From a virus: a DNA stretch of 45,378 nt. Position 1 is the first letter of the stretch. Each line of letters begins with the position of its first letter. Below, piece by piece: positions 2,210-35,293 of the stretch. The notes under the pieces are model-generated. The model saw only the letters and a list, made by a program, of their open reading frames with translations. It was not told where the DNA came from and ran no database searches. Location of the stretch: positions 1 to 45,378 of IMG/VR virus record IMGVR_UViG_3300037247_000528. One strand, given 5' to 3'. Position numbers and translations under genes: made by a program.

Positions 2210-2411
2210 CGGCACACGCCTTCTCCCACGCTCTCAGCTTGGCCTGGTCGCTCGCTGCCTGGCATGGGCAGGCGTGCGACTCGGCGCAACTGATATGGCT
2301 TATCTGGTAGCACGATGAACAGGTCAAAATCCCTTCTTCTTCGTCCGTCTCGTCGGTGTCGAGAAAGCTGATCTTGCAGATCGCGCAGTGGCCAGGGTCG
2401 TCGTCGGTCAT
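2202..2411 (-). CDS. small RING/PHD-like zinc-binding protein, 69 aa
   Basis: Eight potential zinc ligands are arranged as CAIC, CSSC, HISC and CPC with an acidic loop (DTDETDEEEG) between the first two knuckles. The spacing is close to cross-braced RING or PHD fingers, although the last pair is C-x-C. No catalytic domain accompanies it. The end overlaps the methyltransferase start, so the two are probably translated together. Function unknown; a protein- or nucleic-acid-binding adaptor is plausible. Confidence 0.7.
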   Translation of the reverse strand: MTDDDPGHCAICKISFLDTDETDEEEGILTCSSCYQISHISCAESHACPCQAASDQAKLRAWEKACADA

Positions 2412-30871: not shown

Positions 30872-32185
30872 CTAGCTCCGGCCGGCGACAGCGATCTTCG
30901 CGCCGGACTCGGTTGCGCCGAGGCGCCGGAACGATTCTTCCAGTTCCTTGTCCGCCTTCTCTTCGTCCCCGGCGCCGACCGAGCCGCCCAAGCCCTTGAT
31001 GCTGCCAGACTCGGTGAGCTTGGCCAGGTACTCGATCTCCGCCTTCGTCGCTTCCTCGATGGCCGTGCCGAGCGCGTCCTTGTCGAGCGCGCCGTCCTTG
31101 GTGGGCGGCTTGGCCGACAGCGACTCTTCGAGCCGGGCCTGGGTCAGCTCGGGTAGGTGCTCGACCTTGGCCAGCACCTCAGTGACGATCTCACGGGCCT
31201 CGCGGAGCACAGCGCCTTCCTGAAGCCGGGCTAGCTCGGTGCCCTGCTTGGTCTGCGCTTCCTTCAGCTCGTCCCGCTCCTTCTCTGCGGCCTCCGCCCG
31301 GCCTAGCGCTTTCTTTAGTTCCTGTTCGCTCATCTGTGGGTCTCCCTTCTTGTGATCGAGAATCCGCGCACGGGCGGACTCCATCAGTTCCAGTACCTTG
31401 CCGCCGGCCCCGGCTGCTGTCACAAAGTCAACGCTGATGCCGGAGTCGAAGCGCTCCAACACCGGGCCCTTGCGCCCCTCCCTTTCCCCTTCCGACGCTT
31501 CGCCCATCGCCCTGATACTCACGCCGATATGTGGTGCCAGTTCGTCCAGGGCATCGCGGAAGGGCGCGATTACCTCCGCGTCGCCATAGAGACCGGGACC
31601 AGCGGGGCCTTCAGCCATCCAGCGGGCATCACCTGTCAGAGCCCCCACAAGATCACGCACAGAGCGCTCGGGGCGCTGCTTGTCTTCGCTCTCGGTGGGA
31701 TGGTCGAGGAACATGTGGGTGCCCTTGGGGAACGCTTTCGGGCCGTCGCGCTCTAGCACCTCCGCTGGATAGAAGGCAGCCGACCCCCAGCCAGGCTCAA
31801 TGATCTTGACGGATAGCGTGCCATCGCCACGCACGCTGGCTTCCTTAAGGGGGATAATGTCGCTAATGAGTTCGGGCGGCGCCTGCTCTTGAAGCCGGTC
31901 ACTGATGAGCTTGCCCAAGCGCTCAATGGCTCGAGTGATAGGGCCGGACTCTTCCTGTCGCGCTTCCTCGAAGGTGATCGCCCCATCCTCGCCAATCACA
32001 CAGCCCGCCTCCCGCATCCCGCCTGCCACGGTGTTAGCCTGACGGATCGCGCTGCCCTCGCAGTCGCTCTTGCCGGCCTCTTCACAGGCCGTGAGCGCGC
32101 CATTCGCCACCCGCACCCAAAGCGCTTTCTGCGCTGTTGATAGCCCCGCTTTGTGCCCCTCTACGTCTGCGGTTACGAACGGCAT
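30872..32185 (-). CDS. capsid maturation protease fused to scaffold, 437 aa
   Basis: N-terminal ~60 residues contain LSTAQKALWVRVANGAL and CEGSAIRQANTVAGG, a conserved accessory module. The protease domain follows (about 110-280) with HMFLDHP, GVSIRAMG (probable Ser nucleophile) and VDFVTAAGAGG. The C-terminal ~150 residues are a charged scaffold-like coiled coil. An internal ATG 31333 behind GGGAGA could start the scaffold alone (MSEQELKKALGRAEAAEKER). The start codon is preceded by a hairpin that includes the SD. Confidence 0.85.
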   Translation of the reverse strand: MPFVTADVEGHKAGLSTAQKALWVRVANGALTACEEAGKSDCEGSAIRQANTVAGGMREAGCVIGEDGAITFEEARQEESGPITRAIERLGKLISDRLQEQAPPELISDIIPLKEASVRGDGTLSVKIIEPGWGSAAFYPAEVLERDGPKAFPKGTHMFLDHPTESEDKQRPERSVRDLVGALTGDARWMAEGPAGPGLYGDAEVIAPFRDALDELAPHIGVSIRAMGEASEGEREGRKGPVLERFDSGISVDFVTAAGAGGKVLELMESARARILDHKKGDPQMSEQELKKALGRAEAAEKERDELKEAQTKQGTELARLQEGAVLREAREIVTEVLAKVEHLPELTQARLEESLSAKPPTKDGALDKDALGTAIEEATKAEIEYLAKLTESGSIKGLGGSVGAGDEEKADKELEESFRRLGATESGAKIAVAGRS

Positions 32186-32283: not shown

Positions 32284-32312
32284 ATGGTATGGAAGGGTGC
32301 GGGGATTGTCAA
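32284..32312 (-). promoter_or_regulatory. promoter for the head genes
   Basis: TTGACA (32312-32307), 17-nt spacer, TACCAT (32289-32284) on the minus strand. It would give a leader of about 92 nt ahead of the protease start that contains the SD-occluding hairpin. Confidence 0.65.
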
Positions 32313-32378
32313 GGGGGAGGGCACTCAATCAGAGGACTTCAGACGTTCAATGGCCCTACCCCCTGACGGTCTCGTAAC

Positions 32379-32551
32379 ACGGCGGGCATACTTCCTTTGG
32401 GCTTCAAACATGACCTGCCCGCCGTTGATACCTTATGGTGCGCCGGGCATTTCACACGTGGATTTCAAGCCTGGAATGGCCCGGTGCGGTTTGGTCATGC
32501 AAGCGCGGGCACTACGAGGCTGGGCTCCAGACTACTGGTGGCCCGGCGCTT
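32379..32551. repeat. hairpin repeat array, downstream side (3 units)
   Basis: Unit A: ACGGCGGGCA (32379-32388) and its exact reverse complement (32416-32425), 27-nt loop. Unit B: CCGGGC (32443-32448) with GCCCGG (32479-32484), 30-nt loop. Unit C: AAGCGCGGGC (32501-32510) with GCCCGGCGCTT (32541-32551), one bulge, 30-nt loop, inside the coding 3' end. On the minus strand the loops of A and B carry TTGAAnyCC, and A continues CAAAG. Confidence 0.75.
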
Positions 32552-33304
32552 CCATTCTACCCACATGTCCTTGATCAGTTCCTTGACGGCCACGCGCATG
32601 GCGTCGTTGTGCAGATGTGCCGACACCTCCTGGCCGTCGCCGTTCTCGTGGACGCAGGGATACACCTTATTGTCTTTCTTGTGCTCGTGGCCCATCGGGC
32701 AGTCCGCCGGCCCAGTGCGGACCCGCGCCAGCGTCGCGGCCTTGCGAGTGTCGTAACACTCCCGGTACTTCCCACGCCCGAGCTTGACGATGGCCTCGCC
32801 GATCTGGTGTGCCACGACCTGGCCCTGCGGTGAGAAGGCGTTGCCCTCCGCCTCTTCGGTTGTCTTCACCATCTGGACGCCTCGCTCGCGCCTGGGGCGC
32901 TTGCCAGCGACGACGTGCAGGCCCATGTACTTCCAGACCTTGGCCACGTTGGGGAAGGCTAGGAAGCTGCCCGTCACGCCGACGATGCGAGCGAAACCGC
33001 CGTAGCCTAGGCCGGGGCAGGCGTCTACCCAGTCGGCCATGATGTGCTGCTTGACGAGGCTTCGCAGCATCTTCTCGATGGCCCGTTCCTGTTCTTCGAA
33101 TGAGGCCAGCGTGATCTTGTGCAGGTTCGTCCATTGCTCGGGCAGGCCGTCACGAATGATCGCCTTCATGCGATTGTTGACCATGACCCGGACGTGCTGG
33201 ACATCCCAGAGCAGGCGGGCGTAGTGGCCTAGTTCGGCTTCGATGCGGGGGAGATCGGCAGATGCAGTTTGGTCGTCAGGGAGTCGTTGGCCGTTGGTCT
33301 CCAT
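32495..33304 (-). CDS. IS110-type transposase C-terminal (Transposase_20/HhH) domain protein, 269 aa
   Basis: Coiled-coil-like N terminus, then ACPGLGYGGFARIVGVTG (about 95-112), FPNVAKVWKYMGLH (118-130) and a C-terminal helix region (HNDAMRVAVKELIKDMW), the order of the IS110 C-terminal domain. The DEDD/RuvC-like N-terminal catalytic domain of IS110 enzymes is absent. The catalytic-Ser position typical of 'SG' after the G-L-A/H motif here reads AG (VVAGKRP), so it may be inactive. An insertion at about 200-220 has C/H residues (CPMGHEH...CVH) that could bind zinc. Starts behind GAAGGA; flanked by hairpin repeats. A non-catalytic RNA- or DNA-binding role is possible. Confidence 0.6.
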   Translation of the reverse strand: METNGQRLPDDQTASADLPRIEAELGHYARLLWDVQHVRVMVNNRMKAIIRDGLPEQWTNLHKITLASFEEQERAIEKMLRSLVKQHIMADWVDACPGLGYGGFARIVGVTGSFLAFPNVAKVWKYMGLHVVAGKRPRRERGVQMVKTTEEAEGNAFSPQGQVVAHQIGEAIVKLGRGKYRECYDTRKAATLARVRTGPADCPMGHEHKKDNKVYPCVHENGDGQEVSAHLHNDAMRVAVKELIKDMWVEWKRRATSSLEPSLVVPALA

Positions 33305-33316
33305 GGTTCCTTCTTT

Positions 33317-33497
33317 CTAGCGCGGCACTCATGCTTTGGGCTTCACGAGACTGATGGCCGCGCGGCAAATCTCGGTCGGATTTCACCTGGGCAGTGGCTA
33401 CGCGGCACTACCACTTTGGGGGCACACCGGGCCTCAGTCAACGCTTGGCCACGCAGCAAAAGTCCTTTGGGGTTCGCGAGGGCGTTGGCCGCGCGGC
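33317..33497. repeat. hairpin repeat array, upstream side (5 GC-rich repeats, 40-bp period)
   Basis: Near-palindromic 10-bp repeats at 33317-33326 (partial), 33357-33366, 33397-33406, 33448-33457 and 33488-33497, with spacers of 30, 30, 41 and 30 nt. On the minus strand the repeat is GCCGCGYGGC and the spacers share GTGAAnCCCAAAG-type cores. Neighbouring repeats can pair, often with G-U pairs. The last copy abuts the stop codon of the 171-residue gene, and the first lies just before the IS110-like start. Confidence 0.8.
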
Positions 33498-34013
33498 TCA
33501 ATCCATCACCCGGCTCGACTCCCAGAGAGAACGCAACTGATCATCGGTAAAGACGGTAGTCACCGTCTGGTCGAGCTTGAGCTTCTGCTGTATCTGCTCT
33601 AGGAAGTTCACGTCCTGGATGAGGCCACGGGCCTTGACCGCGAACTCGCCCTTGGCTGCCTGGCACGTAACCTTATCGAAATCCCCGAGCCGAATGGTCT
33701 GGCCGCCGACATGCCAGAGGGTATCCATGAGCGAGTCGTCACCCTTCAGCAACTCGGGGTCATGGCGGCGCTGGCCAGTTAGAGCCGCCTTGCGGTCTTT
33801 CCGTATGCGGTCCTGGTAGACCTCCCGCACAGTCGTCACTGCGAACTCCCGCACGAAGGTGTCGCTGTGCCCTTCCTTTACAATCCGCTCTGCCGCGACA
33901 GCGAAGGCTTCGTTATGCTCGCCGCCTTTGCCCAGCGCTTCGTCCGTCCACTCGATGATGAGTTGGCGCAAGGTGGTTTCGGGCTTTGGTGAGGTGTTAG
34001 ACTGAGGGCACAT
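33498..34013 (-). CDS. hypothetical protein, 171 aa
   Basis: Strong AGGAGGTGA SD. Mixed helical protein with a conserved-looking central part (ERIVKEGHSDTFVREFAVTT and DRIRKDRKAALTGQ) and a C-terminal helix-rich region. No motif recognised. It lies between the zinc-ribbon gene and the repeat array; its stop codon is the array boundary. Confidence 0.65.
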   Translation of the reverse strand: MCPQSNTSPKPETTLRQLIIEWTDEALGKGGEHNEAFAVAAERIVKEGHSDTFVREFAVTTVREVYQDRIRKDRKAALTGQRRHDPELLKGDDSLMDTLWHVGGQTIRLGDFDKVTCQAAKGEFAVKARGLIQDVNFLEQIQQKLKLDQTVTTVFTDDQLRSLWESSRVMD

Positions 34014-34068
34014 CGGGAGTCACCTCCTGGTGTCGCGCGGCAGGCCGTCACTTGCGGCGCTGCCGCCC

Positions 34069-34239
34069 TTATTTTATCACATTCTCCGCGCTCACCGTCA
34101 ACACGCCGCCCTGTAGGTCGAGCAGCAACTGGGCGCCGCACCCTTTGCACCGAAGCCGCTGGCCTTTGATCTCCTCAGCCTGGGTGAGATGGCGGCCGCA
34201 TGATGGGCAGTGGATCGAGGTCGCGGTGGGAGGCGTCAT
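34069..34239 (-). CDS. Com-like zinc-ribbon protein, 56 aa
   Basis: CPSCGRHLTQAEEI and RLRCKGCGAQLLLDL form a four-Cys ribbon with the spacing of phage Com-type translational regulators, although these are usually next to mom. ATG 34239 overlaps the upstream stop (ATGA). Function inferred only as small nucleic-acid-binding protein. Confidence 0.55.
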   Translation of the reverse strand: MTPPTATSIHCPSCGRHLTQAEEIKGQRLRCKGCGAQLLLDLQGGVLTVSAENVIK

Positions 34240-34451
34240 TTAGGGAAAGCCCGGAATGCTGAAAGTCGCAATGCGAACGCCGACTGCGCAGTCGTCATGT
34301 CTTCTATCTTCAGGCCACACCAACGGCAATCGAGGCGGTCAAGCCACATTAGATGGCCGAGCATCGCGCCGCAGAGTTCTGGCGATACGATCACGCGGCC
34401 ACCCTCACGCGCACCAACGAGAGTCCGGATCTCGCTGGCTGTCAGGTCCAT
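34236..34451 (-). CDS. hypothetical protein, 71 aa
   Basis: DLTASEIRTLVGAREGGRVI and CRWCGLKIEDMTTAQSAFAL. A Cys pair may bind metal. TGATG coupling to the MuF-like gene supports ATG 34451 over the adjacent GTG. Unknown family. Confidence 0.6.
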   Translation of the reverse strand: MDLTASEIRTLVGAREGGRVIVSPELCGAMLGHLMWLDRLDCRWCGLKIEDMTTAQSAFALRLSAFRAFPK

Positions 34452-35293
34452 CACGCCGCTACCCTCACGCTAGCAGGCTGGCGGCGCAGCATCAGGCTGC
34501 ACCGGCACGCTGGGTGAGCTAGCGGCTGATCGTCACCAGAAGGAAAGGTGTCATTGAGCGGAATCCAGCCAGCCGCAGCGTTCGCCTCGCAGTCCGCATC
34601 GACTCGGCGGTCCCCAACATCGAGCCACGCCTTCTCCATTAGCAGGCCGGCCGCCATCAGGTCGTCAGCCACAGCGCGAGTGCCGACCGTATAGGCGTTG
34701 CCCGTCTCCGTCACCGCTACCAGGTGGGCCCGACTCCTGATGTGCTGCTGGGGTTGCGGTGTCGAGAAGCCCGCGTACCTTTCCCGGATGTTCCGAGCAA
34801 TCCGGTCATAGCTCTGGCCCTCGCTGAGCCCGGTAGAGATGATGGTGCGAAGGCCGCGCTTCGTCTCAGCGTTGACCCTGGCGACGGCCTCAGCGCCGTG
34901 GGTCTCAAGGAACACCGCCGCCCTCGGGTTGCCCAGATCGAACGCGCCCGTCACGCTGAAGTCCGCCATCGTGTGCCCTGCCCCGAGCAAGAGCGAGTCT
35001 TCGATGCCCTGTAATGTCCCCGCCGCGAAGAGCGACTCGCTGGCCGCAACGCTGTCGAAGATGGCCTCCCAGTCCGGCGGCAGTACATCGCCAGCGGCCT
35101 CGCTCAGCCTGCCTGAGAGGATGCCAGCCCGGCGGTTGAGCGCGGCAATAAACGCCGCTCCCTGCTTGCGGAAGGCGGCCTGCATGGCCAGCTCGATCTT
35201 GCGCTCGAGCGGATCCAGGGCGCGGAGCTTGCGCTGTGCAGTGAAGGCTTCGATGAGAGCGGTGAGGGCGGGAGCGAAAGCGCTACTGGCCAT
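34451..35293 (-). CDS. head morphogenesis protein (Mu gpF/SPP1 gp7-like)
   Basis: 280 aa. The C-terminal region has RSRAHLVAVTETGNAYTVG, AWLDVGDRRVDADC and HPACRCSLM, the Mu F-like minor head domain. These proteins link portal and capsid and may be ejected with DNA. It follows the portal gene and a small gene that overlaps it by 11 nt. Confidence 0.85.
   Translation of the reverse strand: MASSAFAPALTALIEAFTAQRKLRALDPLERKIELAMQAAFRKQGAAFIAALNRRAGILSGRLSEAAGDVLPPDWEAIFDSVAASESLFAAGTLQGIEDSLLLGAGHTMADFSVTGAFDLGNPRAAVFLETHGAEAVARVNAETKRGLRTIISTGLSEGQSYDRIARNIRERYAGFSTPQPQQHIRSRAHLVAVTETGNAYTVGTRAVADDLMAAGLLMEKAWLDVGDRRVDADCEANAAAGWIPLNDTFPSGDDQPLAHPACRCSLMLRRQPASVRVAA

What the first reader, a model, noticed from the sequence alone, without database searches (positions are those of the whole stretch)
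32379..33497. Hairpin-forming 40-bp repeats flank an IS110-domain gene on both sides
Upstream of the IS110-like gene lie near-palindromic GC repeats at 33317-33326 (partial), 33357-33366, 33397-33406, 33448-33457 and 33488-33497, with spacers of 30, 30, 41 and 30 nt. Downstream are three inverted repeats with loops of 27, 30 and 30 nt (32379-32425, 32443-32484, 32501-32551), the last inside the gene's 3' end. On the minus strand at least three loops or spacers share a TGAAnCCCAAAG-like core although the flanking stems differ (ACGGCGGGCA versus GCCGCGCGGC); neighbouring stems use G-U pairs. A stem changing while its loop stays fixed suggests structured RNA or a transposase-type binding site. 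I saw no similar units elsewhere in the window. IS110 elements use non-coding 'bridge' RNAs, so a decayed or repurposed bridge-RNA-like system is one hypothesis; a REP-like array bound by the protein is another.
Basis: partly seen in the sequence, partly recalled or inferred. Interest (0 to 1): 0.9.

Follow-up and report, generated by a model that had tools for sequence, protein, structure and literature searches.

The report
Phage TIGR-TasA guide-RNA cassette
A phage carries a 1.8-kb insert encoding a small RNA-guided DNA-binding protein (TasA), seven two-spacer guide RNAs on either side of it, and a conserved but unrecognised partner gene, a variant of the recently discovered TIGR-Tas systems whose natural job is still unknown.

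Summary
The repeats are real and on the minus strand: seven hairpins against 0.01 expected in shuffles. Each has stem, CCA (box C), 9-nt spacer A, a UG...CCA loop (usually TGAAGCCCA), 9-nt spacer B, UG (box D). That is the published anatomy of a stem-loop TIGR array. The 'IS110-domain' gene is TasA (NCBIfam TIGR_Tas 133.5 bits, cut-off 100; profile matches TasR and TasH structures). It is not a transposase and shows no decay. About 60 homologous loci give the same blind result: a 30-nt loop with two variable 9-nt tracts between conserved boxes.

Three things go beyond the published text I could read. (1) The window and one relative (61% identical TasA) form a deep lineage; the window's upstream subarray shares palindromic edges like a dual-repeat array, its downstream one has separate stems. 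(2) A ~150-190-aa gene of unknown function (phrog_4604) lies just upstream of tas in 49 loci, all of stem-loop type, and in none of seven dual-repeat loci; the window copy is divergent (E=4e-4). (3) A sibling phage has a clean empty site: gene, arrays and partner move together.

No targets were found. Cultured cluster A mycobacteriophages carry the same system, with spacers varying in fixed stems, so function is testable.

The parts
32317..34081 (-). Inserted cassette (1765 bp): partner gene + 4-unit array + tasA + 3-unit array
   Evidence: Blastn against sibling phage L062 (portal 76%, capsid 94% identical): homology runs to 34082 and resumes at 32316, and the cassette is replaced by 2 nt (L062 5866-5867)
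33498..34013 (-). Divergent partner protein, 171 aa (phrog_4604-like family, function unknown)
   Evidence: Iterated family profile E=4e-4 among all ORFs of all loci, hhalign E=9e-6; same position as the family member upstream of tas in 49 other loci
33319..33497 (-). Upstream TIGR subarray: four units sharing palindromic edges (periods about 40, 51, 40 nt)
   Evidence: Sequence; scan; shuffles
33459..33485 (-). tigRNA unit 1: ACGCCCTCG | CGAACCCCA | AAGGACTTT (spacer A | loop | spacer B)
33408..33445 (-). tigRNA unit 2: AGCGTTGAC | TGAGGCCCGGTGTGCCCCCA (20-nt loop) | AAGTGGTAG
33368..33394 (-). tigRNA unit 3: CTGCCCAGG | TGAAATCCG | ACCGAGATT
33328..33354 (-). tigRNA unit 4: TCAGTCTCG | TGAAGCCCA | AAGCATGAG
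   Evidence: NCBIfam NF052498 133.5 bits, cut-off 100, E=9.8e-39; PDB profile: TasR 9mty 1.6e-29, TasH 21kl 2.4e-14; single-sequence 9mty E=2e-9
32512..32538 (-). tigRNA unit 5 (stem 32501-32551, overlaps 3' end of tasA): CCAGTAGTC | TGGAGCCCA | GCCTCGTAG
32450..32476 (-). tigRNA unit 6 (stem 32443-32484): TTCCAGGCT | TGAAATCCA | CGTGTGAAA
32389..32415 (-). tigRNA unit 7 (stem 32379-32425, box C is GCA here): GGTCATGTT | TGAAGCCCA | AAGGAAGTA

Best explanation
This is a phage-borne TIGR-TasA system of the stem-loop-array type, carried as a mobile cassette between two head genes. The minus-strand array is transcribed (inferred) and cut into seven stem-loop guide RNAs (inferred from the published stem-loop example). 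[quoted passage not shown] By homology with TasR, a TasA dimer holds one guide, spacer A pairs with one strand of the target DNA and spacer B with the adjacent stretch of the other strand, and the DNA is opened and bent. TasA has no nuclease domain, so it would bind and block rather than cut (inferred). No spacer pair matches the phage's own genome, so the most likely targets are competing phages, plasmids or host DNA (inferred, no target found). The upstream partner gene is proposed to be a dedicated component of stem-loop TIGR complexes, either holding the extended stem or acting as the effector recruited to TasA (inferred).
For: Unit anatomy matches the published rule motif for motif: edges begin UG and end CCA, loops begin UG and end CCA, 9-nt spacers. 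TasA exceeds the curated TIGR-Tas cut-off and matches TasR and TasH in the PDB. The scanner finds 260 same-strand units within 1.5 kb of homologous tas genes, against 16 on the opposite strand and 43 in the remaining 399 kb on both strands. A blind hairpin search gives a spike at a 30-nt loop (230 against about 20 for other lengths) with information only at positions 1-2, 12-20 and 30 and near zero in both 9-nt tracts. In 187 units, 7.79 of 8 stem positions pair, against 4.93 with arms shuffled, over 131 different 5' arms. The nearest TasA relative (61%) has 8 units, most with the same TGAAGCCCA loop, in an unrelated phage context. A sibling phage has the empty site. There is no self-target with 3 or fewer mismatches in the A-rc(B) order.
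Against: No RNA or protein data. Units 1, 3 and 7 deviate from the box consensus (loop CG start, CCG end, GCA box C) and unit 2 has a 20-nt loop, so some units may be inactive. No natural target was found for the window spacers or for cluster A mycobacteriophage spacers. The AF2 model of TasA alone was poor (pLDDT 40), so its fold rests on sequence profiles. The window's partner match is weak (E=4e-4).
Confidence: 0.93

Rival explanations
1. A degenerate IS110 element whose bridge RNA has decayed into a tandem array; the protein is a truncated transposase.
For: IS110 and Tas share the Nop-type RNA-binding domain; homologues in phage records are annotated 'transposase'; PHROG names the family transposase.
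Against: No DEDD domain; no Pfam IS110 hit even at E=10; TIGR-Tas model above cut-off. Twenty-nine genomic loci hit by the Tas model below its cut-off, most with ~400-aa IS110-like frames, show only 4 unit-like matches in 100 kb over both strands, and none has the partner. The array/Tas layout is conserved over dozens of phages, not decaying.
Confidence: 0.03
2. The hairpins are DNA or mRNA elements (REP-like sites, operators or terminators) bound by the protein, not guide RNAs.
For: Hairpins are GC-rich and intergenic; one overlaps the gene end.
Against: Two tracts of exactly 9 nt carry about zero information between strictly conserved boxes, which guides predict and binding sites do not. Stems vary freely but stay paired. 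Units lie on the tas strand. In near-identical phages the stems stay fixed while the 9-nt tracts change.
Confidence: 0.04
3. It is TIGR-TasA, but works in the phage's own biology (for example guiding integrase or host takeover at host sites) rather than competition between phages.
For: Faure et al. suggest TasA bending could aid integration; spacers do not match the phage itself; no phage target was found.
Against: Spacer turnover between near-identical M. smegmatis phages looks like diversifying selection, odd for a fixed host or attachment-site role.
Confidence: 0.3

Closest known systems
TIGR-TasA with stem-loop array (Peromyscus leucopus gut contig; Faure et al. 2025, PMC12045711)
   Different: Upstream subarray shares edges between neighbours (dual-repeat-like) while the downstream one has separate stems; a partner gene is present; box D is UG as in TasR rather than the CG of the actinophage group
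TaTasR / SpTasH dual-repeat TIGR systems (PDB 9mty, 21kl)
   Same: UG...CCA edge and loop repeats, 9-nt loop and spacers, homologous Nop domain
   Different: No RuvC or HNH domain; variable palindromic stems instead of fixed edge repeats; about 40-nt instead of 36-nt period
Cluster A mycobacteriophage locus (for example HermioneGrange gp73-gp75, annotated 'transposase'/hypothetical)
   Same: Stem-loop array between a phrog_4604 gene and tasA, same strand
   Different: Array on one side only (5 slots); loop CGAAACCCA; TasA about 27% identical
IS110 bridge-RNA transposons
   Same: Related RNA-binding domain and dual-guide, box C/D-like logic
   Different: No DEDD transposase domain, no two-loop bridge RNA, no element ends
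TIGR tasParB operons (PMC12045711)
   Same: Second gene operonic with tasA
   Different: tasParB goes with dual-repeat arrays; the gene here has no ParB hit and goes with stem-loop arrays

Membership tests
TIGR-Tas | Tas protein with Nop-type RNA-binding domain | tested here: met
   NF052498 133.5 bits over cut-off 100; TasR/TasH profile hits
TIGR-Tas | Adjacent array, upstream and/or downstream, many units | tested here: met
   4 + 3 units flanking the gene, shuffle mean 0.01
TIGR-Tas | Two 8-12-nt spacers per unit flanked by box C (CCA) and box D (UG), motifs matching between edge and loop | tested here: met
   9/9-nt spacers in all 7 units; UG/CCA in both positions with three deviating units
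TIGR-Tas | Stem-loop subtype: variable palindromic sequences in place of edge repeats | tested here: met
   Different stems in all three downstream units; paired stems across 187 units
TIGR-Tas | TasA subtype: no nuclease domain | tested here: met
   269 aa, no Pfam nuclease match
TIGR-Tas | Array expressed, processed and bound by Tas | not testable with these tools
   Needs small-RNA sequencing
TIGR-Tas | Guide-directed binding to both strands of DNA | not testable with these tools
   No natural target found
IS110 transposon | DEDD (RuvC-like) transposase domain plus Transposase_20 | tested here: not met
   No Pfam IS110 hit at E<=10; NCBIfam hits TIGR-Tas only for the window protein
REP/RAYT | Y1 HUH transposase beside palindromes | tested here: not met
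   Adjacent protein is a Tas protein; no HUH match
CRISPR-Cas | Long identical repeats and cas genes | tested here: not met
   No Cas or defence model match for the two cassette proteins; repeats are 9-13 nt and alternating

The most novel reading that the evidence does not exclude
Stem-loop TIGR systems are two-protein machines: TasA works with a dedicated partner (phrog_4604 family, helical, no solved relative) that dual-repeat systems lack, perhaps doing for the long tigRNA stem what L7Ae does for box C/D snoRNAs, or acting as the recruited effector. The window lineage, with shared edges upstream and free stems downstream, is a surviving intermediate between the two array types.
Probability: 0.5. 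Interest if true: 0.78.

Novelty: new variant of a known kind. Interest (0 to 1): 0.64.

Why it matters
What TIGR systems do in nature is open; the discovery paper found no natural target and describes TIGR systems generally as one protein plus an array. A partner gene tied to one array type gives a concrete handle on mechanism. The same system sits in about 75 records of culturable M. smegmatis cluster A phages, with fixed stems and changing spacers. That makes the questions of target, function and spacer turnover testable by phage genetics instead of by heterologous expression.

Tried and rejected
Rfam: no hit. Single-protein search of IMG/VR for TasA: none; the nine-member alignment gave 52 loci. 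Self-targets in the window: none with 3 or fewer mismatches in the order A-rc(B). All-against-all target search in about 625 kb of loci with shuffled-pair controls: not clearly above chance (42 hits with up to 2 mismatches against 27-31 shuffled, many of them the same hit in near-identical phages; the reversed order gave 40). BLAST of three cluster A targets against 50,697 phages: none; only exact ungapped 18-mers could have shown. IMG/VR exact scans for units 4, 6 and 5: 1, 1 and 2 hits in unrelated contigs, no sign of a shared target. Recurrent k-mers in spacers: marginal only. AF2 of TasA without alignment: too poor to use. Fold search with the partner model: nothing in the PDB (best E 3.8), only its own family in BFVD. 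Close relatives of the window partner in IMG/VR: none. Plasmids: none. PADLOC: no match.

Full report
WHAT IS THERE. The window is a 45,378-base IMG/VR virus record. On its minus strand, between a Mu-F-like minor head gene (34451-35293) and a head maturation protease (30872-32185), lie a 171-aa gene, four hairpin units, a 269-aa gene and three hairpin units. Read on the minus strand, every unit is stem, box C, 9-nt spacer A, loop, 9-nt spacer B, box D, stem. Box C is CCA in six of seven units. The loop is TGAAGCCCA or a one- to three-base variant in six units, and a 20-nt version in unit 2. Seven units are found against 0.01 expected in 1000 dinucleotide shuffles.

WHAT IT IS. In the TIGR-Tas paper (PMC12045711), edge and loop repeats both start UG and end CCA, spacers are usually 9 nt, arrays lie up- and/or downstream of the gene, and a second 'stem-loop' array type replaces edge repeats by variable palindromes. 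The window shows exactly this. The protein scores 133.5 bits (cut-off 100) against NCBIfam NF052498, 'TIGR-Tas system RNA-guided endonuclease'. A nine-sequence profile finds TasR (9mty, 1.6e-29) and TasH (21kl, 2.4e-14) in the PDB. With no nuclease domain, it is a TasA.

HOMOLOGOUS LOCI. Named-phage homologues come from Mycobacterium, Gordonia, Rhodococcus and Arthrobacter phages, with weaker matches in other phages; IMG/VR gave 52 loci. A motif scan finds 260 units on the tas strand within 1.5 kb, 16 on the other strand there, and 43 in the remaining 399 kb of both strands. Because that scan presupposes the motifs, I also searched for hairpins without any motif. Loop length spikes at 30 nt (230, background about 20). 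The 230 loops carry information at positions 1-2 (CA), 12-13 (CG), 18-20 (CCA) and 30 (C/T), and almost none at 3-11 and 21-29: two 9-nt spacers. Over 187 units, 7.79 of 8 stem positions pair, against 4.93 with arms shuffled; these units were chosen with a stem score, so the blind search is the cleaner evidence.

PARTNER GENE (not in the paper's main text). In all eight named-phage loci an annotated gene a short way upstream of tas encodes one family, phrog_4604, unknown function. A profile finds a member 42-1026 nt upstream, same strand, in 47 loci, rising to 49 on iteration. The loci without it are L010 (upstream sequence cut off), seven loci that have 36-nt-period dual-repeat arrays instead, and three with no array found. 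No partner-bearing locus has a clear dual-repeat array (four have only loosely scored stem-loops). After removing near-copies the split is 35 to 0 against 0 to 7, Fisher p=4e-8. Bacterial loci not used to build the profile also carry it: L068 and L069, and L067, which is a copy of L055. Among 399 Mycobacteriales genomes one (G001, included because it has Tas) has a Tas over the cut-off, and the same one alone has phrog_4604, 324 nt upstream. In phage records the close cluster A forms number about 75 for tas and 74 for the partner. The window's 171-aa gene is a divergent member: E=4e-4 against all ORFs and the best hit outside the core set, at the expected place. An AF2 model of a typical member (pLDDT 89.8, mostly helical) has no PDB match. 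The paper names only tasParB as a tasA neighbour, in dual-repeat loci, and otherwise describes one protein per system. I could not read its supplements.

CASSETTE AND LINEAGE. A sibling phage (L062; portal 76%, capsid 94%) lacks exactly 32317-34081, replaced by 2 nt, and has no Tas anywhere in its 43 kb. So partner, arrays and tasA moved as one. In the Tas tree the window and L010 form a long, fully supported pair outside the actinophage stem-loop group (39 rows) and apart from the dual-repeat loci; the deep forks are only moderately supported. The window's upstream subarray shares palindromic edges at about 40-nt spacing, close to the dual-repeat format; its downstream units have their own stems. 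The paper speculated about such intermediates; calling this one is inference.

TARGETS. Geometry inferred from the reported 8-nt 3' overhangs: target top strand = spacer A followed by the reverse complement of spacer B. No self-target, no clear excess in local searches against shuffled pairs, no convincing database hit. Cluster A phages keep stems in five slots while spacers change, as expected for guides under turnover.

MECHANISM, SHOWN AND INFERRED. Shown: array anatomy, Tas family membership, partner linkage, mobile cassette. Inferred by homology: processing into stem-loop guides, dimeric TasA with one guide, two-strand DNA recognition. Inferred without direct support: block-not-cut action on foreign DNA, and the partner's role.

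Noticed in passing
Cluster A mycobacteriophages, e.g. HermioneGrange MK820638 gp73-gp75 (L008 1690-3196); L034, L038-L049: Genes annotated 'transposase' or hypothetical are TasA; five hairpin slots between gp75 and gp73 keep their stems while the 9-nt spacers differ between near-identical phages.
   Followed up: partly
Mycobacterium phage Cueylyss MK359316.1, 45057-45128: Only the last 24 codons of tas remain (100% identical), with no annotated gene: a natural deletion of the TIGR locus, useful as a control phage.
   Followed up: no
window units 1, 2, 4, 7 (spacer B); also L026, L028, L052: Four of seven window B spacers begin AAG, and three unrelated phages share the B-spacer string AAGGAAAC; TCGAT recurs in B spacers of nine phage groups. 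Slightly above the null; could be shared targets or unit duplication.
   Followed up: partly
NCBIfam NF052498: The model is named 'RNA-guided endonuclease' but covers nuclease-less TasA proteins such as this one, so automatic annotation will mislabel them.
   Followed up: no
window 2229-2262 (minus): One isolated TIGR-like hairpin far from tasA; consistent with chance (one in 45 kb).
   Followed up: no
L011, L016, L017, L018, L020, L035, L037: IMG/VR phage contigs with dual-repeat TIGR arrays at 36-nt period beside TasA and without the partner gene.
   Followed up: partly
window 32284-32312 (minus): A sigma-70-like promoter (TTGACA-17-TACCAT) sits at the 3' edge of the cassette, is kept in the sibling L062, and likely drives the head protease gene.
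   Followed up: partly
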